Source of the DNA: Megalobrama amblycephala
Taxonomy: Eukaryota > Chordata > Actinopteri > Cypriniformes > Xenocyprididae
Assembly (NCBI RefSeq): GCF_018812025.1
Contig: NC_063061.1
Location: 32,297,697 to 32,361,696 of the forward strand
Direction of reading: 5' to 3'
DNA: 64,000 nucleotides
Shown in pieces: positions 11,898 through 64,000 of this stretch (position 1 is the first letter of the stretch; every line of letters begins with the position of its first letter). The notes below the pieces were generated by a model, which saw only the letters and a program-made list of their open reading frames with translations, ran no database searches and was not told the origin of the DNA. The position numbers were made by a program, and so were the translations under genes.

Positions 11898-12973
11898 AGC
11901 TGATAGAAGTGAAGGAGGAGAGTGAAGAACTGAGTGAAGTGGAGGAACATCATGACAAACCTGGAGAAAAACCTTTGAGTTGCTCAAAGACTAAAAATAC
12001 ATTTCTAAAGAAAACGAGAGCCAAGAAATCTACAACCTGCACTCAGTGTGGAAAGAGTTTCTCAACCAAACAAAGTCTTGAAGTTCACATGAGAATTCAC
12101 ACCGGAGTGAAGCCGTTCACATGTGATCAGTGTGGAAAGAGTTTCTCAACCAAACAAAGTCTTGAAGTTCACATGAGGATCCACACTGGAGAGAAACCGT
12201 TCACATGTGATCAATGTGGGAAGAGTTTCTCAACCAAACAACATCTTGAGATTCACATTAGAGTTCATATAGGAGAGAAGCCGTTCACATGTGATCAGTG
12301 TGGGATGAGTTTCACACAAAAAGGACATCTTAAGAGTCATATGAAAGTTCACACTGGAGAGAAGCCACACACATGTGATCAATGTGGGAAGAGTTTCAGT
12401 CAATCAGCAAACCTTAAAGCACACATGAGGATCCACACAGGAGAGAAGCCACACACATGCGATCAGTGTGGAAAGAGTTTCTCAACCAAAAGAAATCTTG
12501 ATGTTCACATGAGAGTTCATACAGGAGAGAAGCCATTCACATGTGATCAATGTGGGGAGAGATTCACACAAACAGGAAATCTTAAGAGTCATATGAAAGT
12601 TCACACCGGAGAGAAGCCACACACATGCAATCAATGTGACAAATCATTTCTAGGGTCATCAGACCTGAAGAGACACCTGAGAGTTCATACAAAGGAGAAG
12701 CCACATTCATGTTCTGTGTGTGGAAAGAGTTTTTCACTGTTTTATAGTTTACATAAACATGAGAAAACACACACTGGTGTGAGAGAGTACATGTGCTTTG
12801 AGTGTGAGAAGACTTTTACTACAGCAAACCATTTAAAACGCCACCAGAGAATTCACACTGGAGAAAAACCTTACAAGTGTTCATACTGTGACAAGAGATT
12901 CAGTGTATCATCAAATCTGAAAACACATGAGAGGATCCACAGCAGAGAGAAGCTGCACACGTGTGATCAGTGA
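11898..12973 (+). CDS. C2H2 zinc-finger gene, finger exon (11 intact fingers)
   Basis: Second coding exon. It starts after ttcatttcag and completes the split Glu codon, giving a 398-residue protein with the exon at 3204. An acidic stretch (ELIEVKEESEELSEVEEHHD) precedes 11 C2H2 fingers with TGEKP-type linkers between about 12034 and 12955. Residues at helix positions -1/3/6 are T/S/V, T/S/V, T/H/I, Q/H/S, Q/N/A, T/N/V, Q/N/S, G/D/R, L/S/K, T/H/R and V/N/T. Fingers 1 and 2 have the same contact residues and almost the same DNA, a recent duplication. The ORF stops at TGA (12971-12973) right after the first Cys of a twelfth finger. Probably a nuclear DNA-binding regulator; targets not predictable here. 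Confidence 0.9.
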
Positions 12974-21573: not shown

Positions 21574-21950
21574 TTAGGGGTGGTGCCATGCTCGATTACT
21601 CTAGTGCGTCAGACAGTTATATAGTGTTAGGGGTGGGGCCATGCTCGGTTACTCTAGTGCGTCAGACAGTTATATAGTGTTAGGGGTGGGGCCATGCTCG
21701 ATTACTCTAGTGCGTCAGACAGTTATATAGTGTTAGGGGTGGGGCCATGCTCGGTTACTCTAGTGCGTCAGACAGTTATATAGTGTTAGGGGTGGGGCCA
21801 TGCTCGATTACTCTAGTGCGTCAGTTATATAGTGTTAGGGGTGGGGCCATGCTCGGTTACTCTAGTGCGTCAGACAGTTATATAGTGTTAGGGGCGTGGC
21901 CATGCTCGAGGGCTCCAGTGCGTCATCGAGCCCCCAGTTTAGCACCGCCT
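21574..21950 (+). repeat. 53-bp tandem array, about 7 copies, alternating variants
   Basis: Unit: ttaggggtggggccatgctc followed by g(a/g)ttactctagtgcgtcagacagttatatagtg. Successive copies alternate gatta and ggtta, so the real period is a 106-bp dimer. The fifth copy lacks gaca; the last copy has diverged (ggggcgtggccatgctcgag). The array continues into the gap on its left, so its true size is unknown. Confidence 0.9.
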
Positions 21951-42257: not shown

Positions 42258-43160
42258 CAAACCCGATTCCAAAAAAGTTGGGACACTGTACAAATTGTGA
42301 ATTCTTGTCTAATACAGGCTTCTAGTTGCTCAACTGTCTTAGGTCTTCTTTGTCGCATCTTCCTCTTTATGATGCGCCAAATGTTTTCTATGGGTGAAAG
42401 ATCTGGACTGCAGGCTGGCCATTTCAGTACCTGGATCCTTCTTCTATGCAGCCATGATGTTGTAATTGATGCAGTATGTGGTCTGGCATTGTCATGTTGG
42501 AAAATGCAAGGTCTTCCCTGAAAGAGACAACAACTGGATGGGAGCATATGTTGTTCTAGAACTTGGATATACCTTTCAGCATTGATGGTGCCTTTCCAGA
42601 TGTGTAAGCTGCCCATGCCACACGCACTCATGCAACCCCATACCATCAGAGATGCAGGCTTCTGAACTGAGCGCTGATGAACAACTTGGGTTGTCCTTGT
42701 CCTCTTTAGTCCGGATGACATGGCGTCCCAGTTTTCCAAAAAGAACTTCAAATTTTGATTCGTCTGACCACAGAACAGTTTTCCACTTTGCCACAGTCCA
42801 TTTTAAATGAGCCTTGGCCCAGAGAAAACGCCTGCGCTTCTGGATCATGTTTAGATATGGCTTCTTTTTTGACCTATAGAGTTTTAGCCGGCAACGGCGA
42901 ATGGCACGGTGGATTGTGTTCACCGACAATGTTTTCTGGAAGTATTCCTGAGCCCATGTTGTGATTTCCATTACAGTAGTAATGGAAATCACAACAAAAA
43001 GTTGGGCCACTGTACAAATACATTTTCTCAGTTTAAACATTTGATATGTCATCTATGTTGTATTCTGAATAAAATATTGAAATTTGAAACTTCCACATCA
43101 TTGCATTCTGTTTTTATTCACAACTTGTACAGTGTCCCAACTTTTTTGGAATCGGGTTTG
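42258..43160 (-). mobile_element. Rearranged Tc1-like element (copy A) with palindromic junction
   Basis: Ends caaacccgattccaaaaaag (left) and its mirror (right) are flanked by TA. Inside, the transposase runs minus, but the right terminal 160 bp are the 3'-side flank of the element in the opposite orientation, as shown by comparison with copy B (54500-54644). The switch occurs at a 17-bp-arm palindrome (42958-42995). So one end has been replaced by an inverted copy of the other. 903 bp versus 1576 bp in copy B. Confidence 0.8.
42296..43000 (-). pseudogene. Tc1-like transposase remnant in copy A
   Basis: Minus-strand frames give ATVMEITTWAQEYFQKT, SVNTIHRAIRRCRLKLYR, the first catalytic Asp in VLWSDESKF, then after a frame change LMVWGCMSACGMGSLHIWKG, the second Asp in FQHDNARPHTA and SPDLSPIENIWR. 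The frame change lies near 42690 (deletion next to the cagcgctcag word). The helix-turn-helix is missing at the palindrome and the extreme C-terminus runs into the left inverted repeat. Dead copy. Confidence 0.75.
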
Positions 43161-43523: not shown

Positions 43524-43524
<1 letters not shown>

Positions 43525-43938
43525 GTGCTGTCCTCACTGCAGTGTAGCAACTGCAGCTATACAGCCAGCTAACTCTGATACAAAATGACGAAAAGTCGTA
43601 GTGAGCAATTTCTTGCTGTTTACTGTGGCTTTCAACATCATCTTACATGACAGAGTGAAAACTGTAACAAAGGAAAAAAGTTTGAATGTTTTAACAAATC
43701 TTGTCTAATGAAATATATCTGTATCTGCATGTAAATAAACACTGTAACTATGTTTGGTCTTTTCTTTTAAACATTATTGTAACATCAACTTATTAACATA
43801 ATGAATTTTGTACTTACGACATTGCTTCTAGCGCTAACAACAGATGGATTGCATGTACACACATACTGTCAACTTCCTTCTTTCCTTACAGGAAATAACC
43901 TCTAACCCCGAACTCCAGATCTACATCATATCAAAATA
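43524..43938 (-). repeat. BEL/Pao 3' LTR
   Basis: On the minus strand it runs from tattttgatatgatgtagat to gtgaggacagcaca. Matches 49825-50239 over its full length. Exact ends are uncertain by about 5 bp. Confidence 0.8.
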
Positions 43939-49824: not shown

Positions 49825-50239
49825 TGTGCTGTCCTCACTGCAGTGTAGCAACTGCAGCTATACAGCCAGCTAACTCTGATACAAAATGACGAAAAGTCAT
49901 AGTGAGCGATTTCTTGCTGTTTACTGTGGCTTTCAACATCATCTTACATGACAGAGTGAAAACTGTAACAAAGGAAAAAAGTTTGAATGTTTTAACAAAT
50001 CTTGTCTAATGAAATATATCTGTATCTGCATGTAAATAAACACTGTAACTATGTTTGGTCTTTTCTTTTAAACATTATTGTAACATCAACTTATTAACAT
50101 AATGAATTTTGTACTTATGACGTTGCTTCTAGCGCTAACAACAGATGGATTGCATGTACACACATACTGTCAACTTCCTTCTTTCCTTACAGGAAATGAC
50201 CTCTAACCCCGAACTCCAGATCTACATCATATCAAAATA
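49825..50239 (-). repeat. BEL/Pao 5' LTR
   Basis: Near-identical partner of 43524-43938; substitutions seen at cgtag/catag, gcaat/gcgat, acgacatt/atgacgtt and aataacc/aatgacc. The gag leader (gtgaaaagacacgaagttag on the minus strand) follows directly; no primer-binding site could be assigned. Confidence 0.8.
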
Positions 50240-53068: not shown

Positions 53069-54644
53069 CAAACCCGATTCCAAAAAAGTTGGGACACTGT
53101 ACAAATTGTGAATAAAAAAGGAATGCAATAATTTACAAATCTCCTAAACTTTAAATATTTTATTCACAATAGAATATAGATAACATATCAGATGTTGAAA
53201 GTGAGACATTTTGAAATGTCATGCCAAATATTGGCTCATTTTGGATTTCATGAGAGCTAGTTTGGACAGGTAGCAATAAGAGGCTGGAAAAGTTAAATGT
53301 ACATATAAGGAACAGCTGGAGGACCAATTTGCAACTTATTAGGTCAATTGGCAACATGATTGGGTATAAAAAGAGCCTCTCAGAGTGGCAGTGTCTTTCA
53401 GAAGTCAAGATGGGCAGAGGATCACCAATTCCCCCAATGCTGCTGTGAAAAATAGTGGAGCAATATCAGAAAGGAGTTTCTTAGAGAAAAATTGCAAAGA
53501 GTTTGAAGTTATCATCATCTACAGTGCATAATATCATCCAAAGATTCAGAGAATCTGGAACAATCTCTGTGCGTAAGGGTCAAGGCCGGAAAACCATACT
53601 GGATGCCCGTGATCTTCGGGCCCTTAGACGGCACTGCATCACATACAGGAATGCTACTGTAATGGAAATCACAACATGGGCTCAGGAATACTTCCAGAAA
53701 ACGGTGTCGGTGAACACAGTCCACCATGCCATTCGCCGTTGCCGGCTAAAACTCTATAGGTCAAAAAAGAAGCCATATCTAAACATGATCCAGAAACGCA
53801 GGCGATTTCTCTGGGCCAAGGCTCATTTAAAATGGACTGTGGCAAAGTGGAAAACTGTTCTATGGTCAGATGAATCAAAGTTCTTTTTGGAAAACTGGGA
53901 CGCCACGTCATCCGGACTAAAGAGGACAAGGGCAACCCAAGTTGTCATCAGCGCTCAGTTCAGAAGCCTGCATCTCTGATGGTATAGGGTTGCATGAGAG
54001 CATGTGGCATGGGCAGCTTACACATCTGGAAAGGCACCATCAATGCTGAAAGGTATATCCAAGTTCTAGAACAACATATGCTCCCATCCAGTTGTTGTCT
54101 CTTTCAGGGAAGACCTTGCATTTTCCAACATGACAATGCCAGACCACATACTGCATCAATTACAACATCATGGCTGCCTAGAAGAAGGATCCGGGTACTG
54201 AAATGACCAGCCTGCAGTCCAGATCTTTCACCCATAGAAAACATTTGGTGCATCATAAAGAGGAAGATGCGACAAAGAAGACCTAAGACAGTTGAGCAAC
54301 TAGAAGCCTGTATTAGACAAGAATGGGACAACATTCCTATTCCTAAACTTGAGCAACTTGTCTCCTCAGTCCCCAGACATTTGCAGACTGTTATAAAAAG
54401 AAGAGGCGATGCCACACAGTGGTAAACATGGCCTTGTCCCAACTTTTTTGAGATGTGTTGATGCCATGAATTTTAAAATCAACTTATTTTTCCCTTAAAA
54501 TGATACATTTTCTCAGTTTAAACATTTGATATGTCATCTATGTTGTATTCTGAATAAAATATTGAAATTTGAAACTTCCACATCATTGCATTCTGTTTTT
54601 ATTCACAATTTGTACAGTGTCCCAACTTTTTTGGAATCGGGTTG
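53069..54644 (+). mobile_element. Tc1-like element (copy B), near full length
   Basis: Ends caaacccgattccaaaaaag and cttttttggaatcgggttg, 1576 bp. TA on the right (54645-54646); the left flank reads tg, a mutated TA. Same family as copy A at 42258. Contains a transposase gene on the plus strand with stops and a deletion. A second internal cccaacttttttgag (54437-54451) lies before the 3' flank, as usual for this family. Confidence 0.85.
53410..54425 (+). pseudogene. Tc1-like transposase in copy B, several lesions
   Basis: ATG at 53410 (MGRGSPIPP) is followed by a stop; KIVEQYQKGVS then a TAG, then RKIAKSLKLSSSTVHNIIQR (helix-turn-helix) and GQGRKTILDARDLRALRR. The first catalytic Asp lies in VLWSDESK (about 53870). 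Seven bases are missing just after it compared with copy A, shifting the frame. The second Asp (IFQHDNARPHTASI) and the PIENIWCIIKRKMRQRR block follow, separated by a TGA at 54205 where Trp is expected. The end GDATQW and TAA at 54425 look original. Confidence 0.8.
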
Positions 54645-54842: not shown

Positions 54843-54861
54843 TGTAGCTGGTTCAAATATT

Positions 54862-54901
<40 letters not shown>

Positions 54902-55154
54902 AAGAATAATGTTAATGAACTTCATCAAAACTTGTTATTTTCTTATATTCTCATGTTTGTGTTCAGAGTTATAATGAGGCATAACATGCATAATTAATTC
55001 GAGTAGGAACCGTTAATGCAGAATATTTTATGGGGCACATAATGGTGACGCACACAATACCTCGTGCGATGTGTGAACAGCGCCATCTTTAGAAGCACAT
55101 TTGCTATTGACGAGGTCGGTTGTGCTTTCTCTCGCTCTTCAAACAAGAGTGCTG

Positions 55155-55304
55155 GTAAGGAGATTTCTCTAAGTGTAAACAATATCATCGATTAATTTCA
55201 TGAGATAAATAATGTTTAAGTGTAATGTAAGACGGTGATTTCATGAAATGTAACGCATTGAATTGTATTTTGAACATTTTACTGAGATTGGTTTTGCTTA
55301 CTAG
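55155..55304 (+). other. Intron-like spacer inside the LTR
   Basis: 150 bp, begins GTAAGG (good donor after gctg) and ends TTACTAG. The same two flanks occur at 55832/55833 joined exactly at these borders, which is the best evidence that the spacer is removed from RNA. The 3' LTR has the same spacer at 63144-63294, one base longer. Confidence 0.75.
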
Positions 55305-55768
55305 CTTTTTCCATGCTGTATGGATCACTGAAGGGGAGAGACGTGTATCCCAAAAAACATTAATTGTGCTCTGTGTATTTCTGCAGGTATGTTCGTTGTT
55401 TATTGTATTATATGTTGAGAAATGTTTGAAATGTGTTTACTATCGAGTTTATACGAGTTTGATAGATACAAAAAAAAAGAGTGAGGTCTGTATGCAAACG
55501 TGATGTTATCAAATTTAATATTTTCAATTTAAATTGTGCAAAATCTGTAACTTTGCACATTTCCCCCCATTTAATTAATTTACTGATGCGAGTACGCGGT
55601 GAGGAACTATATTTTCTTTTTTTATATATATTTCATATGCCATATAATGGTGACATGTATTTTGTGACTTACTTTATTTGTTTGTTTTATCTTAATTATC
55701 TTGATTTATTTGATTTATACTATTTGTCTTATGTTTTGTAACTGTTAATTGAGTAAATTGCCTTCTTG

Positions 55769-55914
55769 AGAAGCACATTTGCTATTGACGAGGTCGGTTG
55801 TGCTTTCTCTCGCTCTTCAAACAAGAGTGCTGCTTTTTCCATGCTGTATGGATCACTGAAGGGGAGAGACGTGTATCCCAAAAAACATTAATTGTGCTCT
55901 GTGTATTTCTGCAG
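55769..55914 (+). repeat. Spacer-free A'-B' duplicate in the 5' LTR
   Basis: 146 bp identical to blocks A (55091-55154) and B (55305-55386) fused at the GT-AG borders. It is followed by acctgcttcttcag, not by the gtatgt that follows block B. Equivalent in the 3' LTR: 63761-63906. Confidence 0.9.
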
Positions 55915-55928
55915 ACCTGCTTCTTCAG

Positions 55929-55934
55929 AATAAA
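55929..55934 (+). terminator. Polyadenylation signal AATAAA in the LTR
   Basis: AATAAA in ttcagaataaaccttcctga, about 80 bp before the LTR end; in the 3' LTR (63921-63926) it would direct 3' end formation of the element's RNA. It lies after the A'-B' block. Confidence 0.6.
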
Positions 55935-56014
55935 CCTTCCTGAGACCTGCTCCACCTGTATTGTCATCTTTGAGAGCAACAAAACACAACCAGAGTAAAA
56001 CTGCTACATAAAAA

Positions 56015-56026
56015 TGGTGCCGTGAC
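56015..56026 (+). promoter_or_regulatory. Primer-binding site, matches tRNA-His 3' end
   Basis: tggtgccgtgac, six bases after the LTR, is complementary to the 3' end of vertebrate tRNA-His (GTCACGGCACCA) over 12 of 12 bases. First-strand cDNA synthesis would start here. Confidence 0.75.
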
Positions 56027-56291
56027 CTACTGGATCAACTGGATCAGCCGCAGCCGATCGCCGGAGTTGTGCAACGTGTTCGTGACGTATTGATGCTGCA
56101 TCTGGAGATCGAGGAATCGATTTCACCATTGTTCTGGTAACTGTAAACCAAAAAAAAAAAAAAAAACAGAGAGACCTTTTTCCGTGGACTGACATATTGA
56201 ACTGTTGTCTTTTTCCTCATCATACTTACTGGACATTGAATGAGGCCAGTTTTCTTTTGTGTTTATTCTGTCACTGTCATATATTTACACC

Positions 56292-57641
56292 ATGGCCGGG
56301 GCATGGAAAGACTCTGATATGACAACGCCATATCTGGGGAGGGGCAGAGGGTTGTTGGGGGTGGAAGAAACTGCCGTTGGTAAACCTAGAGTGTTAGCTT
56401 ATAGTCCTCAATCACATGATACCCTACTAGATCAACCTATTGGGCCGACTGCCTCCACTCCTAGTGATGCAAATGATAACATTGCACAGCAGTTACGTGA
56501 ACTTATTGGTGAATTAGGCAGTCAGATAGGTGATTCCATCGTCACCCGGCTATTAACTAGTCAAAGCCCAGTCACCCCCTCCAGTTCAGTCCCATTCAGT
56601 GCTGTTGCACCAGAACCCTCTAACGCAGGCCGAAATCTAACTAATGTCAGCCTGATAGTCAAGCCAGATGTCAAAGAGCCTCCAATGTTTAGAGGAGATG
56701 GAACAGACAAATACGCAGTTCAAGAATGGATTGAGTTGATGGAATTGTATCTCCACAAAGCGGATTGCTCTGACACAGATCAGGTAGATGAGATACTGAG
56801 CCACCTGCTAGGCAGGGCCAAGAGTATTGTCAAGGTCAGACTCAAAAGCAGCCCTAACGAAGCCATCTCCCCTGAGACCATCTACGATGTGTTGAGACGT
56901 TACTTCAGTGAAAGTCCTGTATCATGTCAACCACTTGCTGACTTTTACGCGACACGACCCAAAGTAAATGAGTGCCCTGTTGATTACTGGGTTCGATTAA
57001 ATGCAGCTGCTGAATTAGCAGATAGCCATTTGCAGAAACAAGGAGAAAAGATGAAAAACATGAGTTCTGAAATTGCGATGATGTTCATCAGAAACTGTTC
57101 AGAACCAAACCTCTCTAGTATGTTTAGGTGTAAACCTATCAGTAAATGGTCAGTCACTGAAATTCAGGAGGCCATTGACGAACACCAAAGGGAAGTCCAG
57201 TCTAAAAAACTGTCCGCTGTCACGCATGATGTTAACACCGTCCAAGTCGCTGCAGCTAAAGTATCAACCTACCCCCACGCTGTCACCAAGGGAGATGATA
57301 TGAAGGCGGATGCTCCTGTTTATGTCCCTGATAGTCCTTTGAAGGCTGCTGAACCTGCAACTTCAGAAGCTGCCACTTTGGAGCGTGTCTTAAGTATGCT
57401 GGAAAAGGTACTGGAGCGTACAAGTCAGAATGCTCCCATCTCACAGCCGAGAACAACTCAGTGGCGCAGCTTTCCCCCGTGCAGAGTCTGCGGTGATAGG
57501 AATCATTCCACACGTTCACATTGTATGAGAGAAAGGAGATGTTTGTTGTGCTTGGAGATTGGGCATCAGCAGAAACAATGCCACAAAGTCGTCAGCCCTG
57601 CTAGTCCATCTGCTTCTGACCTGCACGCTCAGGGAAACTAA
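56292..57641 (+). CDS. gag: Gypsy Gag with two zinc knuckles
   Basis: Structural protein of the element's particles. The ORF is open from 56259, but the ATG at 56292 has an ideal context (caccatgg) and is taken as the start, giving 449 residues. A Gly-rich N-terminus leads to a capsid-like helical region (EPPMFRGDGTDKYAVQEWIE, then IYDVLRRYFSESPVSCQPLA, residues about 130-300) and two knuckles near the end: CRVCGDRNHSTRSHC (about 397-411) and CLLCLEIGHQQKQC (417-430). No internal stop, so Gag looks intact. The ORF closes at TAA; pol follows in the same frame after a second stop. Confidence 0.85.
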   Translation: MAGAWKDSDMTTPYLGRGRGLLGVEETAVGKPRVLAYSPQSHDTLLDQPIGPTASTPSDANDNIAQQLRELIGELGSQIGDSIVTRLLTSQSPVTPSSSVPFSAVAPEPSNAGRNLTNVSLIVKPDVKEPPMFRGDGTDKYAVQEWIELMELYLHKADCSDTDQVDEILSHLLGRAKSIVKVRLKSSPNEAISPETIYDVLRRYFSESPVSCQPLADFYATRPKVNECPVDYWVRLNAAAELADSHLQKQGEKMKNMSSEIAMMFIRNCSEPNLSSMFRCKPISKWSVTEIQEAIDEHQREVQSKKLSAVTHDVNTVQVAAAKVSTYPHAVTKGDDMKADAPVYVPDSPLKAAEPATSEAATLERVLSMLEKVLERTSQNAPISQPRTTQWRSFPPCRVCGDRNHSTRSHCMRERRCLLCLEIGHQQKQCHKVVSPASPSASDLHAQGN

Positions 57642-57674
57642 TACACTCACGTATGGGAGGGGATTATGTGAGGT

Positions 57675-60344
57675 GCAAAATGTCAAACCCTCAATGTGGA
57701 TGATGATTTATATGTTTATGATGAATGTTGCAAGTCTGTCTCCAGTAACAGTGTCGTCCTATTCCAGAATGTCACAAAGTTGGAAAAGGCAGATAGTCTG
57801 TTCTATACTTCAGTTCTGTTGAATGACAAACTCACAGTCCAAGCTCTACTGGATAGCGGATCTATGGCATGTACGATCAATGAAGAAACAGAGCGTGAAC
57901 TTTTGAACATGGGAATGTCTGCACAAGTAGATCAGCCACATATGGACGTTCTTCTCATTGGCTGTGGTGGTGTTAAAGTCAGACCAAAAGGAGTCTATCA
58001 GCTGAAGATGGACGTGTATGGCAAGTTAGTGAGTGTGCCTACACTAGTCGTCCCGGGACAGAGAGATCAATTGATTCTGGGAACTAATGTCATTAAGTTC
58101 ATACTTACTCAGCTCAAACAAACCTCTGGCTATTGGAATGTCATGAATCGTCCTGAAACATCTGGAGAACCTGAAATTGAGCAGTTCCTGAACATGTTGT
58201 CGGGCATTAACAGGTGGAAGGGTGGTGAAATCCCTGATATTGTGGGCACTGCAAAACTAGCCCAGGCCATTACTCTGTTGCCCAAACAAGAACACCTCGT
58301 GTGGGGTAAACTTCCATCAAACACCCCTATTTCTATGGGAAGTACTGTTGTGATTGAGCCACCTAAGGCGCAGACCCACAAGAAAGGCATCATGGTGGGA
58401 AGAGTCATTGCCTCTATGTCTGGTGATGGTTGGGTCCCAGTCAGGATCATGAATCCCTTTGATAAGGCTATTACACTGAGAAGGAACTCAAAAATAGCTG
58501 ACGTCTTCCCTGTTGTGGCTGTTGAAGACCTCAATGTGCACCTTGATCGCAAGAATGATAAGATGCTGAGTGTGCAGAACCAGGGCATCAATGGAGGCAT
58601 AGATGGAGATTGCCCTGCTTTCGAGCTCCGTGAAAGCCTTCAGAAACTTGGTCTTGGCGATTTAGACATTGAGTCGTGTGAAGTATCCCACTATTGGAAG
58701 AGTCAGCTAGTACAGCTTATTAGGAGGCATGAGGACGTATTTTCCAAGCACAAACTAGATTGTGGAGAAGCCAAGGAGTTTGTCCACCGTATTCGTTTGT
58801 CAGACGATTGTCCATTCAGGCTTCCATACCGCCGTGTTCCACCAGCGCAGTACCAGAAGCTAAGGAGTGTTCTTTCTGAGATGGAGGAACAGGAAATCAT
58901 ACGCAAGTCTAATAGTGAGTGGGCTTCGCCTCTTGTGTTGGTATGGAAGAAAAATGGAGACCTCAGAGTGTGTGTTGACTACCGTTGGCTGAATGCTCGG
59001 ACTGTTAAGGATGCCCACCCCTTGCCTCACCAGGCGGACTGTTTGGCAGCTTTGGGAGGGAATGTGATCTTTAGTGCGATGGACTTAACCTCTGGTTTTT
59101 ATAACATTGTAATGTCTGAAGAGGACAAGAAGTTCACTGCCTTCACGACTCCAATGGGCCTATATGAATTCAACCGTCTGCCTCAAGGGCTCTGTAACAG
59201 TCCAGCCAGCTTTATGCGACTCATGATCAACATCTTCGGTGATCAGAACTTTCTCACTCTCTTATGCTATCTTGATGATCTTCTTGTGTACGCTCCAAAT
59301 GAAGAAGCGGCCATTGAGCGGCTTGAGCTGGTGTTTTCTAGGCTCAGTGCGCATGGACTGAAGTTGGCGCCAAAGAAGTGCCATTTTCTTCGAAGAAGTG
59401 TGAAATTTCTAGGGCATGTCATTGACGGCACTGGAGTGGCAACAGATCCAGACAAGGTTAGCGCCATCTCTGCCATATCTGTATCTGATCTGATGATGCC
59501 GGATGGAGTGACTCCTTCACAGAAGAAGATAAAGTCCTTTTTGGGTATGGTGTTATATTATCAAAACTTCATTCAGAACTGCTCCAGTATCGCAAAGCCA
59601 CTGTTTGCTTTGACTGCTGCACCCAGAGGGAAGAAGACCCCTGTGAGAGGCATTGCATCATTCAAAAGACTGAACCCCGATGATTGGAAGCAAGAGCACA
59701 GTGTGGCATTCGAAAAGCTAAAGACAGCCCTGTTAGAATCTGTTGTGCTGGCTCACCCCGATTTCAGCCGACCATTCATTCTATGTACTGATGCGTCTAT
59801 GGATGGGTTAGGAGCTGTACTGTCACAGGTCCCGGAAGGAGAGATTAAGGCACGTCCCATCGCCTTCGCCAGTAAAGCTCTAACTCGTGCACAAGCCAAA
59901 TACCCTGCTCATCGTCTAGAGTTTTTGGCTCTGAAGTGGTCCGTCTGTGACAAGTTTAGTCACTGGTTGAAGGGGCACGACTTTACTGTCTGGACGGACA
60001 ACAATCCTTTAACATACATTATGACGAAGCCAAAGCTTGATGCATGCGAGCAGAGGTGGGTGTCCAAGCTGGCCCCTTATAGCTTTAGCATCCAATACAT
60101 ACCCGGCAGTAGAAATGTAGTCGCAGACGCCTTGAGTAGGCAGCCCTTCATCCGTGGGTGTGTCAGTCAGAGGCTGATGTCTGAGCCATACAGTGTGCTG
60201 TTGGAAGAAGCAGAGCAAGTCCGAGAGAACTCCATACAAGATGTTTTCAGGTTGAGTGCAAACACCTGTAATGTTAAACATTACCCCTGTGCAGATTCAG
60301 AATCATGTTCACTCACCAGTGTTGAAGTGTCGGCAGTCCTTTGA
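57675..60344 (+). CDS. pol: Gypsy pol, first part: protease, reverse transcriptase, RNase H
   Basis: Open frame after a TGA at 57672-57674; same frame as gag. There is no in-frame ATG before the protease, so it is presumably made as a fusion. Protease: ALLDSGSMACTI (Asp at about 57852). RT: CVDYRWLNARTVKDAHPLP, FSAMDLTSGFYNI, LPQGLCNSPASF and the active site YLDDLLVYA at about 59268, with FLGMVLYYQNFI in the connection. RNase H: LCTDASMDGLGAVLS at about 59786, then YPAHRLEFLALKW and WTDNNPLTYI. The ORF stops at TGA 60342-60344, directly after CTT; integrase continues in the +1 frame. Confidence 0.85.
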   Translation, partial: AKCQTLNVDDDLYVYDECCKSVSSNSVVLFQNVTKLEKADSLFYTSVLLNDKLTVQALLDSGSMACTINEETERELLNMGMSAQVDQPHMDVLLIGCGGVKVRPKGVYQLKMDVYGKLVSVPTLVVPGQRDQLILGTNVIKFILTQLKQTSGYWNVMNRPETSGEPEIEQFLNMLSGINRWKGGEIPDIVGTAKLAQAITLLPKQEHLVWGKLPSNTPISMGSTVVIEPPKAQTHKKGIMVGRVIASMSGDGWVPVRIMNPFDKAITLRRNSKIADVFPVVAVEDLNVHLDRKNDKMLSVQNQGINGGIDGDCPAFELRESLQKLGLGDLDIESCEVSHYWKSQLVQLIRRHEDVFSKHKLDCGEAKEFVHRIRLSDDCPFRLPYRRVPPAQYQKLRSVLSEMEEQEIIRKSNSEWASPLVLVWKKNGDLRVCVDYRWLNARTVKDAHPLPHQADCLAALGGNVIFSAMDLTSGFYNIVMSEEDKKFTAFTTPMGLYEFNRLPQGLCNSPASFMRLMINIFGDQNFLTLLCYLDDLLVYAPNEEAAIERLELVFSRLSAHGLKLAPKKCHFLRRSVKFLGHVIDGTGVATDPDKVSAISAISVSDLMMPDGVTPSQKKIKSFLGMVLYYQNFIQNCSSIAKPLFALTAAPRGKKTPVRGIASFKRLNPDDWKQEHSVAFEKLKTALLESVVLAHPDFSRPFILCTDASMDGLGAVLSQVPEGEIKARPIAFASKALTRAQAKYPAHRLEFLALKWSVCDKFSHWLKGHDFTVWTDNNPLTYIMTKPKLDACEQRWVSKLAPYSFSIQYIPGSRNVVADALSRQPFIRGCVSQRLMSEPYSVLLEEAEQVRENSIQDVFRLSANTCNVKHYPCADSESCSLTSVEVSAVL

Positions 60345-61464
60345 TGTTCACACAGAGTGGGAAGTAGGCGCGAGGGATAGAGCGGTCCAGTGGCTCACTC
60401 AGGATACCCACCAGTTGTTGTCTCCAGGTCCTAGTCCCCTGCCGGTTTTCTCATTGAGGGATTTACAGGAAAAGCAGCAGGACGATGCAACCCTGTCAAG
60501 AGTCTTGTTCTATGTAAGAAGAGGAAGAAAACCATCTAGACGTGAGAGAACTGGAGAAACTCACAAGGTAATTAAAACACTTAAACAGTGGGAGAAGTTC
60601 AAAATGCTTGACGGCATACTATACCGAGTGTGCAAGGATGTCCTGATGCGAAAAAAGAGATTGCAATATGTTGTTCCAAGTTCGCTGGTGAAGCAGGTTC
60701 TTCAAGGCATTCATGATGAGGCTGGGCATCAAGGCCAGGGTAGGACTTTATCCCTTGTGAGACAGAGATTTTTCTGGGTCAGTTTGGAAAAGGATGTGCG
60801 TGAGCATGTTAAATGTTGCAAGCGCTGTGTAGTGAGTAAAACTCCCGAACCTGAAGGAAGAGCTCCTCTTGAAAGCATCAAAACATCTAGCCCCCTGGAA
60901 TTGGTCTGCATAGATTTTTGGTCCGCGGAGAATTCCAGTGGTCGCAGTGTGGATGTCCTGGTCATAACAGACCACTTTACTAAGATGGCCCACGCTTTCC
61001 CTTGTAAAGACCAGTCAGCGAAACAAGTTGCAAGGCTGTTGTGGGATAGGTACTTCTGCGTATATGGCTTCCCAGAAAGGATCCATTCGGATCAAGGTGC
61101 CAATTTCGAGAGCCAGCTGATCCATGACCTGCTGGAAGTTGCTGGAGTGAGAAAGTCAAGGACAACAGCGTACCACCCAATGGGCAATGGTCATGTTGAA
61201 CGATTCAACAGAACACTGGGTGGTATGATAAGGGCATTGCCACCTAGAGCCAAGCAGAAATGGCCACAGATGTTGCAGTCGTTGACCTTTGCTTATAATT
61301 GTACAGCCCATGAGTCGACTGGGTTTGCGCCCTTTTATTTGATGTTCGGCAGGGTTCCGAAACTTCCAGTGGATGTAATGTTCAGCAGTGTGGAGAGGGA
61401 CGATGCCCTCATTGACTATGATGCATACGTGAGGAGGGCTGCATTGAGCTATTCTCACGGATGA
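60345..61464 (+). pseudogene. Gypsy integrase, interrupted near its C-terminus
   Basis: The frame is open from 60256 but is coding from about 60343. It has the His-His-Cys-Cys zinc domain (IHDEAGHQGQGRT, then CCKRC), and a DDE core: Asp in LVCIDFWSAENSSG, Asp in IHSDQGANFES, Glu in GNGHVERFNRTLGG. The GPF/Y-like region (STGFAPFYLMFGRVPKLPVD) follows. The ORF ends at 61464 in foreign sequence, an insert bounded by ggatgat repeats (61459, 61690). The DDE core itself is complete. Confidence 0.75.
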
Positions 61465-62372: not shown

Positions 62373-62828
62373 CCCAAGTCAGAACCAGATTTGGCAGGCT
62401 TGTGAAACCTATGAACAGGTTGATTCAGAACATGACCCAAAACATGAAGACAAGCAGTTCAGTCAATGGGGTTACCAGGTCTTTATTGACATAAGATGAT
62501 GAAACTGTTACATAGATTATATTAGTGTTTCTTTTGAGGTTACTTAATTTACATCAAGTTGAGAAGACCAACATTCAGAAAACCTTCAGCTTCATTTAAA
62601 AGTAGCTGTCACATTGAAATCATAGTAGTGGTGTTTGGGGCACCCTATTCACAAGTGTTCTCTTAGTAGGCCTGATCACCCTGCTTGGGTCACTTTCCCT
62701 GTAGGTTGGGAAGCATATGTTGCTGTGTTGAGTGTATTGAATGTCAGTTGAGTTTTTATTCTGTGTGTGGCTTCTTGATCAGCTATTTATCCGTATTGAA
62801 CAAGTTTTGTGAAGTTCAGCGGGGAGAA
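62373..62828 (+). other. Gypsy 3' untranslated region and purine tract
   Basis: About 450 bp without ORF, ending gttcagcggggagaa directly before the 3' LTR. The purine-rich gcggggagaa (62819-62828) is the expected primer for plus-strand DNA synthesis. Confidence 0.65.
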
Positions 62829-62846
62829 TGTAGCTGGTTCAAATAT

Positions 62847-62893
<47 letters not shown>

Positions 62894-64000
62894 AATAATG
62901 TTAATGAACTTCATCAAAACTTGTTATTTTCTTATATTCTCATGTTTGTGTTCAGAGTTATAATGAGGCATAACATGCATAATTAATTCGAGTAGGAACC
63001 GTTAATGCAGAATATTTTATGGGGCACATAATGGTGACGCACACAATACCTCGTGCGATGTGTGAACAGCGCCATCTTTAGAAGCACATTTGCTATTGAC
63101 GAGGTCGGTTGTGCTTTCTCTCGCTCTTCAAACAAGAGTGCTGGTAAGGAGATTTCTCTAAAGTGTAAACAATATCATCGATTAATTTCATGAGATAAAT
63201 AATGTTTAAGTGTAATGTAAGACGGTGATTTCATGAAATGTAACGCATTGAATTGTATTTTGAACATTTTACTGAGATTGGTTTTGCTTACTAGCTTTTT
63301 CCATGCTGTATGGATCACTGAAGGGGAGAGACGTGTATCCCAAAAAACATTAATTGTGCTCTGTGTATTTCTGCAGGTATGTTCGTTGTTTATTGTATTA
63401 TATGTTGAGAAATGTTTGAAATGTGTTTACTATCGAAGTTTATACGAGTTTGATAGATACAAAAAAAAAAGAGTGAGGTCTGTATGCAAACGTGATGTTA
63501 TCAAATTTAATATTTTCAATTTAAATTGTGCAAAATCTGTAACTTTTCACATTTCCCCCCATTTAATTAATTTACTGATGCGAGTACGCGGTGAGGAACT
63601 ATATTTTCTTTTTTTGTATATATTTCATATGCCATATAATGGTGACATGTATTTTGTGACTTACTTTATTTGTTTGTTTTATCTTAATTATCTTGATTTA
63701 TTTGATTTATACTATTTGTCTTATGTTTTGTAACTGTTAATTGAGTAAATTGCCTTCTTGAGAAGCACATTTGCTATTGACGAGGTCGGTTGTGCTTTCT
63801 CTCGCTCTTCAAACAAGAGTGCTGCTTTTTCCATGCTGTATGGATCACTGAAGGGGAGAGACGTGTATCCCAAAAAACATTAATTGTGCTCTGTGTATTT
63901 CTGCAGACCTGCTTCTTCAGAATAAACCTTCCTGAGACCTGCTCCACCTGTATTGTCATCTTTGAGAGCAACAAAACACAACCAGAGTAAAACTGCTACA
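62829..64000 (+). repeat. Gypsy 3' LTR
   Basis: Same layout as the 5' LTR: blocks A 63080-63143, spacer 63144-63294, B 63295-63376, second spacer to 63760, A' 63761-63824, B' 63825-63906, AATAAA 63921. Differences from the 5' LTR outside (TA)n: one extra a in each of ctaaag (63162 area), cgaag (63436 area) and the A run (63461), and two substitutions (aacttttcac, tttgtatat). Ends gctaca at 64000, the window edge. Confidence 0.9.

What the first reader, a model, noticed from the sequence alone, without database searches (positions are those of the whole stretch)
54843..56008. LTR carrying both an unspliced and a spliced-looking copy of the same leader
Blocks A (64 bp) and B (82 bp) are separated by a 150-bp GTAAGG...CTAG spacer, and recur 380 bp later fused exactly at those borders, with no base changes (55769-55914). 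The next spacer also starts GTATGT and ends AG directly before A'. Direct observation: exact fusion at splice borders. Inference: reverse transcription of a spliced leader RNA, for example strong-stop cDNA joined to the end of an unspliced template, wrote an intronless duplicate into the LTR. Both LTRs carry it, so it arose before this insertion and was still mobile.
Basis: partly seen in the sequence, partly recalled or inferred. Interest (0 to 1): 0.88.

Follow-up and report, generated by a model that had tools for sequence, protein, structure and literature searches.

The report
Retrotransposon LTR holding its spliced copy
A jumping element carries, inside its own end repeats, both an intron-bearing version of its leader and the same leader with the intron cleanly removed, which suggests that reverse transcription of spliced RNA has been rewriting the repeat.

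Summary
The element is Ty3/gypsy-type. Both LTRs read U3-A-i1-B-i2-A'-B'-X, and A'B' equals A and B joined exactly at a GTAAGG...CTAG border (146 bp identical, nothing left of i1).

I read 30 more stretches of the same genome. They show five LTR layouts: the window's; A-i1-B-X; A-B-X; A-B-i2-A'-B'-X; and B-i2-A'-i1-B'-X. All five are products expected if strong-stop cDNA from differently spliced leaders lands at either A or A' of an unspliced 3' LTR. Matches to i1 and i2 were found only inside these LTRs. The A-B-X form has itself transposed (4-bp target duplication, LTRs without substitutions). Copies 1 and 2 of one LTR resemble each other more than shuffled pairs do.

The second splice more likely joins B to X (55386/55915) than B to A'. 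By their A-B sequence the most distant LTRs, two insertions, are intronless A-B-X, so intron gain in copy 1 is not excluded. No RNA evidence was available, and the list of copies is a lower bound. A splicing-dependent, self-rewriting LTR is the boldest reading left open.

The parts
54843..56008 (+). 5' LTR (TGTAGC...GCTACA), layout U3-A-i1-B-i2-A'-B'-X
62829..64000 (+). 3' LTR, same layout
   Evidence: 3 substitutions in 1166 aligned bases to the 5' LTR
54843..55092 (+). U3 part, ending CGCCATCTTTAG just before A (initiator / YY1-like motif, recalled)
   Evidence: motif by eye
55093..55154 (+). A, copy 1 (leader exon 1 in this reading; exact repeat starts at 55091)
55155..55304 (+). i1, 150 bp GTAAGG...CTAG, absent between A' and B'
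   Evidence: matches only in LTRs of this family (40 of 48 candidates scored)
55305..55386 (+). B, copy 1 (leader exon 2), ends TTTCTGCAG next to GTATGT
55387..55770 (+). i2, 384 bp GTATGT...TTGAG; preceded by B where the left side is readable, followed by A'
   Evidence: 19 matches (18 of 18 candidates scored), all in loci read
55771..55832 (+). A', copy 2
55833..55914 (+). B', copy 2, fused to A' without i1; its end is a good 3' splice site before X
55915..56008 (+). X: end of R and U5, AATAAA at 55929-55934, ends CA
56015..56027 (+). primer binding site TGGTGCCGTGACC (by position and TGG start; tRNA not identified)
   Evidence: inference
57672..60344 (+). pol frame: protease-like (below Pfam cut-off), RT, RNase H
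   Evidence: PF00078 2.7e-34, PF17919, PF17917, PF13650 23.7 bits against 24.3
60256..61464 (+). integrase frame
   Evidence: PF17921 8.5e-18, PF00665 5.2e-13
62819..62828 (+). purine tract GCGGGGAGAA directly before the 3' LTR (plus-strand primer, inferred)
63082..63906 (+). same module in the 3' LTR: A 63082-63143, i1 63144-63294, B 63295-63376, i2 63377-63762, A'B' 63763-63906

Best explanation
i1 is a spliceosomal intron in the leader of a Ty3/gypsy element, and A'-B'-X is the spliced leader written back into the LTR by reverse transcription. Proposed cycle: the RNA starts near A and is spliced A^B^X (B's donor GTATGT to the acceptor at the end of B'). Minus-strand strong-stop cDNA made on that RNA therefore reads X-B-A without introns. 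It transfers to the 3' end of the RNA, where the LTR is unspliced. If it anneals to A'-B'-X, copying goes on into i2 and upstream, so the new LTR keeps the introns and gets a fresh A'B' (layout seen in the window). If it lands on A instead, both introns and A' are lost (A-B-X). Partly spliced leaders give the other layouts. A'-B'-X thus acts as an intronless R that matches a spliced 5' leader. Shown: the exact fusions, the five layouts, several target duplications, and the similarity of copies 1 and 2 within an LTR. Inferred: the start site, the splicing itself, the transfer, and the first event that placed A' after i2.
For: Exact GT...AG fusion with high-ranking splice signals. Five layouts among 32 stretches: window type 10 readable plus 7 pieces of interrupted or decayed LTRs; A-B-X 8; A-i1-B-X 2; A-B-i2-A'-B'-X 1; B-i2-A'-i1-B'-X 1; too partial 3. 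The A'/B' join lacks i1 in 17 of 18 readable second copies, at CTG|CTTT in the 16 whose letters I read and, by an identical segment map, in L026. The layouts match the splice-state by landing-site table; products of a B^A' splice were not seen. Matches to i1 and i2 only in this LTR family. The A-B-X form transposed: L030/L031 have target duplication CATA and 0 substitutions in 489 aligned bases, with the window's leader over about 570 bases apart from an A run. Copies 1 and 2 within an LTR are closer than permuted pairs: 0.018 against 0.041, 16 of 5040 permutations as low; four overlapping subsets gave 16/720, 2/120, 2/720, 8/720. L033 has four changes in A present in both its copies, two of them seen nowhere else; the window subfamily has two T states in B in both copies.
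Against: No RNA data. By A-B sequence the most distant relatives (L036/L037, L039/L040) and also L035 are A-B-X, so A-B without i1 may be the older state. No B-i2-X ancestor among 19 i2 matches. The base 3 nt before A' is G in 13 of 15 rows and T before A in 14 of 15 rows, so rewriting usually stops short of it. The branch and acceptor end of i1 is not significantly better conserved than its middle (3/28 against 21/115 variable sites, p 0.41). Deletion between the direct repeats could also give A-B-X and A-i1-B-X. Triple layouts, which landing at A' with i2 retained would give, were not seen. L012 B' shares two changes with L030 that its likely partner LTR L011 lacks, which the simple cycle does not explain.
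Confidence: 0.55

Rival explanations
1. A-B-X is the ancestral LTR. Copy 1 (A-i1-B-i2) was added upstream later and gained i1 as a new intron or insert; later exchange between the direct repeats (template switching or DNA recombination) made the other layouts and kept the copies alike.
For: The two insertions most distant by A-B sequence (L036/L037, L039/L040) and L035 are A-B-X. Direct-repeat deletion suffices for A-B-X and A-i1-B-X. L017 looks chimeric: U3 99% but X 89% to the window.
Against: i1 has strong intron borders exactly at the join, no target duplication, and no match outside this LTR family. Repeat exchange would be expected to move i1 between copies, yet the second copy lacks it in 17 of 18. 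A-B-X can arise again, as the young L030/L031 suggests, so old A-B-X copies do not fix the root; and by X alone the intron-layout copies L023 and L034 (84% and 83% to the window) are as distant as L036/L037 (84%).
Confidence: 0.27
2. Tandem promoter LTR: the end of i2 is a second promoter and A' a second start site. RNAs from A' carry A-B-X without splicing, and A-i1-B-i2 is only extra U3.
For: i2 ends with a stretch like ATCTTTAG before A' as before A; i2 and U3 share a 27-nt stretch, 22 of 27, 1 of 200 nulls but 20 comparisons made; the last ~31 nt of i2 vary little even in decayed copies (by eye).
Against: By itself it does not explain the exact GT-AG join or why i1 is missing from copy 2. 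Under another scoring the U3-i2 likeness was not above chance (208 of 1000 nulls as high). It is compatible with the main model as an added start site.
Confidence: 0.12
3. Assembly error or chance.
For: One genome; some indels in homopolymers differ between copies.
Against: Same layout in many places on different contigs with different flanks and target duplications.
Confidence: 0.02

Closest known systems
SpIREs of human LINE-1 (PMC5860796; abstract and outline seen)
   Same: A 5' untranslated region spliced in the RNA is copied by reverse transcription into genomic DNA as an intronless form.
   Different: SpIREs are non-LTR insertions, are described as generally dead ends, and lose promoter sites. 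Here the spliced-looking copy sits beside the unspliced one in the same LTR, and both forms have transposed.
Reverse transcription of spliced HIV-1 RNAs (PMC1868081; title and start of abstract in the listing)
   Same: Spliced retroelement RNA is packaged and takes part in reverse transcription.
   Different: I know of no spliced leader written into that LTR as a lasting duplicate (recalled).
Splice donors within R of HTLV/BLV and foamy viruses (recalled, no call)
   Same: A donor lies inside the LTR's transcribed part.
   Different: There the genomic RNA stays unspliced; no fused duplicate in the LTR (recalled).
Template switching making complex LTR insertions in Triticeae (PMC1950507; title and start of abstract in the listing)
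   Same: LTR element structure altered by template switching.
   Different: Nothing in the listing ties it to splice borders.

Membership tests
Ty3/gypsy LTR retrotransposon (Metaviridae) | LTRs TG...CA with primer site after the 5' LTR and purine tract before the 3' LTR | tested here: met
   primer site by position only, its tRNA was not identified
Ty3/gypsy LTR retrotransposon (Metaviridae) | pol order protease-RT-RNase H-integrase | tested here: met
   the protease match is just under its Pfam cut-off
Ty3/gypsy LTR retrotransposon (Metaviridae) | RT phylogeny within the clade | not tested
   no tree of RT was made
Spliced-RNA retrocopy (SpIRE-like) | exact removal of a segment with splice-site borders | tested here: met
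Spliced-RNA retrocopy (SpIRE-like) | the splice occurs in RNA | not testable with these tools
   no RNA reads available
Spliced-RNA retrocopy (SpIRE-like) | intron-bearing state is ancestral | tested here: inconclusive
   by A-B sequence the most distant copies are A-B-X, but the young A-B-X element L030/L031 shares U3, X and leader with intron-bearing copies
Transposon insertion into the LTR (for i1) | target duplication, inverted ends, copies elsewhere | tested here: not met
   1-nt ambiguity at the join only; all 61 matches fall in this LTR family's loci. A short border pairing, GCTGGTAAG/CTTACTAGC, was seen by eye and not tested further.

The most novel reading that the evidence does not exclude
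An LTR retrotransposon whose replication depends on splicing. The 5' leader of its RNA must be spliced to match an intronless landing pad (A'-B'-X) in the unspliced 3' LTR. Each round rewrites the pad from the spliced leader while the introns survive upstream of it, so an LTR can keep introns that reverse transcription would otherwise erase.
Probability: 0.3. Interest if true: 0.85.

Novelty: new variant of a known kind. Interest (0 to 1): 0.62.

Why it matters
Introns between the start site and the primer site of an LTR element should be lost whenever spliced RNA is copied. Here one family seems to show how they can persist: a spliced duplicate inside the LTR serves as the repeat to which spliced strong-stop cDNA returns. 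If so, the genome holds a fossil record of which leader RNAs were copied and where first-strand transfer landed, and RNA sequencing can test it. In the titles and abstract starts listed by the searches I saw no such LTR described.

Tried and rejected
Shared insertion in B and B' of L018 as proof of rewriting: rejected, the two runs differ (C9A8 against C3A13). Conservation of the i1 3' end as proof of splicing: not significant. i2 as a copy of U3: not above chance under one scoring; 1 of 200 under another with 20 comparisons made. Likeness of i1 to i2, U3, the leader or the stretch before the 3' LTR: at best 87 of 200 nulls as high. i2 against the stretch before the 3' LTR, inverted: 7 of 200, not followed. 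Folding of A'-B'-X: z -0.09, nothing. Relatives in viral contigs: one exact-pattern scan, 0 hits. B^A' splicing: weak site and no product seen. PMC5542766, found by the words 'intron in the LTR', proved to mean a vector named LTR1 (passages) and is not a parallel. A U3-based search for further copies and a leader-based search did not complete, so the list of copies is a lower bound; searches scored 40 of 48 and 40 of 56 candidates.

Full report
WHAT IS THERE. The window lies in a 1.11-Gb assembly (species not identified here). The element has LTRs at 54843-56008 and 62829-64000. Its open frames match RT, RNase H and integrase, with a protease match just under the Pfam cut-off; order and content are those of a Ty3/gypsy element. 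The two LTRs differ by 3 substitutions in 1166 aligned bases; the flank beyond the window reads N, so this insertion's target duplication could not be checked. In the LTR, block A (55093-55154; 55091 if the shared AG is counted) and block B (55305-55386) flank a 150-bp GTAAGG...CTAG stretch (i1). After a 384-bp stretch (i2, GTATGT...GAG), A' and B' follow joined without i1 and without a base change. B' runs into X (AATAAA, then the LTR end).

SPLICE SIGNALS. With donor and acceptor frequencies recalled from memory, the starts of i1 and i2 rank 2nd and 3rd of 96 GTs, and the acceptors at the ends of i1, B and B' rank 4th, 2nd and 3rd of 60, in 54843-56300. The top donor (55599) lies in i2 and the top acceptor (55928) in X. 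The AG before A' ranks 9th. The best second splice is thus B to X (55386 to 55915), not B to A'. The RNA would then read A-B-X, exactly the sequence that stands unspliced at the end of the 3' LTR as A'-B'-X.

RELATIVES. An A-i1-B query gave 61 matches (40 of 48 candidates scored), i2 gave 19 (18 of 18), and B'-X-leader gave 41 (40 of 56). I fetched 30 stretches covering these loci and mapped the segments. Counting the window's two LTRs, 32 stretches were read. Ten show the window layout U3-A-i1-B-i2-A'-B'-X: the two window LTRs and L011, L012, L013, L014, L015, L016, L018, L019 (L019 has an insert in i2 and ends within B'; L014 lacks 24 bp at the i2/A' border). Seven are pieces that I read as the same layout, interrupted or decayed (L021 with L022 and L028 with L029, each pair taken as one LTR split by an insert, an inference from order and strand; L023, L026, L024). 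Eight are A-B-X (L030, L031, L032, L035, L036, L037, L039, L040). Two are A-i1-B-X (L017; L025, cut on the left). One is A-B-i2-A'-B'-X (L033). One is B-i2-A'-i1-B'-X, with U3 and copy 1 partly deleted (L020). Three are too partial to class (L027, L034, L038). Among 18 readable second copies, 17 lack i1; 16 of these were read letter by letter and join at CTG|CTTT, and L026 has the same map as L023. In the A-B-X copies A and B also meet without remains of i1. I saw no stretch with B followed directly by A.

INDEPENDENCE. L030/L031 are the two LTRs of one A-B-X element: target duplication CATA, 0 substitutions in 489 aligned bases. Its leader equals the window's over about 570 bases apart from an A run. 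L016 and L018 are solo LTRs of the window layout with target duplications AGCG and CACT; L013/L014 share ATTG. L036 with L037, and L039 with L040, share flanks and count as one insertion each (by eye). L023 and L026 look like copies of one locus (same map).

HOW IT LIKELY WORKS. If the RNA starts near A and is spliced A^B^X, strong-stop cDNA lacks both introns. Its transfer to the unspliced 3' LTR has two homologous landing places. At A' the introns survive upstream and A'B' is written afresh; at A everything between is lost, giving A-B-X. A leader spliced only at B^X gives A-i1-B-X (landing at A) or A-i1-B-i2-A'-i1-B'-X (landing at A'). A leader spliced only at i1, landing at A, gives A-B-i2-A'-B'-X. 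One search lists these outcomes; each of the five seen layouts is among the one-step products (for L020, allowing its deletion). Landing at A' with i2 retained would give longer, triple forms, which were not seen.

REWRITING. If the two copies had parted once, long ago, they should differ as i2 does between lineages (i2 of L016 is 84% identical to the window's). Instead copies 1 and 2 within an LTR differ by 0.018 against 0.041 for permuted partners (seven lineages; 16 of 5040 permutations as low). Four overlapping choices of loci gave 16/720, 2/120, 2/720 and 8/720. L033 has four changes in A, in both its copies; two of them are seen nowhere else and two recur in one copy of another locus. 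The window subfamily has two T states in B, in both copies, where most others have C. The old copy L023 differs at 14 of 95 sites between its two copies. Exon A itself is constrained or recently shared: it is identical in several lineages, so constraint accounts for part of the likeness.

AGAINST. By A-B sequence the most distant LTRs are all A-B-X (L036/L037 and L039/L040: 77-86% to the window over U3, X and AB). If that is the root state, i1 and i2 were gained by an upstream copy, and the fused copy is not the product of the first splice. Two things soften this. By X alone, the intron-layout copies L023 and L034 (84% and 83%) are as distant as L036/L037 (84%). And A-B-X evidently arises again, since L030/L031 share U3, X and leader with intron-bearing copies. 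i2 was never seen between B and X, so the first step is undocumented. The base 3 nt before A' is G in 13 of 15 rows, while before A it is T in 14 of 15, so rewriting usually stops short of it. L012 B' shares an extra T and a C-to-T change with L030 but not with its likely partner LTR L011; this is unexplained. Conservation of the i1 end was not significant.

COMPARED WITH WHAT IS KNOWN. The nearest known phenomenon is the SpIRE of human L1 (PMC5860796, abstract and outline seen), where spliced 5' untranslated regions are copied into DNA but generally end the lineage. Spliced HIV-1 RNAs are reverse transcribed (PMC1868081, title and start of abstract in a listing). In the titles and abstract starts listed I saw no LTR with paired unspliced and spliced leader copies; most subscription papers are outside that library.

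VERDICT. Confidence in the spliced-leader origin with rewriting is 0.55; in the stronger claim that replication depends on splicing, 0.3.

Noticed in passing
window 54916-54936 and 62799-62818: A 20-of-21 inverted match pairs U3 with the stretch just before the purine tract of the 3' LTR, so the plus-strand primer site would sit inside a long hairpin of the RNA (0 of 200 nulls; alignment; fold z -7.46, partly from an AT repeat).
   Followed up: partly
window 55599 (inside i2): The highest-scoring donor-like site of the LTR, GCG|GTGAGG, lies inside i2 and is kept in most i2 copies that cover it (by eye); perhaps another exon or start site.
   Followed up: no
L012 and L030/L031: B' of L012 carries an extra T and a C-to-T change found in the A-B-X element L030/L031 but not in L011, the likely partner LTR of L012 (matching 6-bp flanks CGTGCG).
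   Followed up: partly
L014, i2/A' border: A 24-bp deletion across the i2/A' border in one LTR of an element whose other LTR (L013) has none there.
   Followed up: no
L017: Likely chimeric LTR: U3 99% but X 89% identical to the window's.
   Followed up: partly
L020, end of A': The end of A' before i1 is replaced by a pyrimidine-rich stretch, yet i1 still starts GTAAGG.
   Followed up: no
window 43524-43823 and 49825-50124: Two 300-bp stretches 99% alike and 6301 bp apart, perhaps the LTR pair of another element.
   Followed up: no
window 11993-12722 and 21574-21940: Tandem arrays with units of 84 and about 53 bp.
   Followed up: no
window 43018-43158 and 54503-54643: A 141-bp repeat, 99% alike, one copy ending about 200 bp before the 5' LTR.
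   Followed up: no
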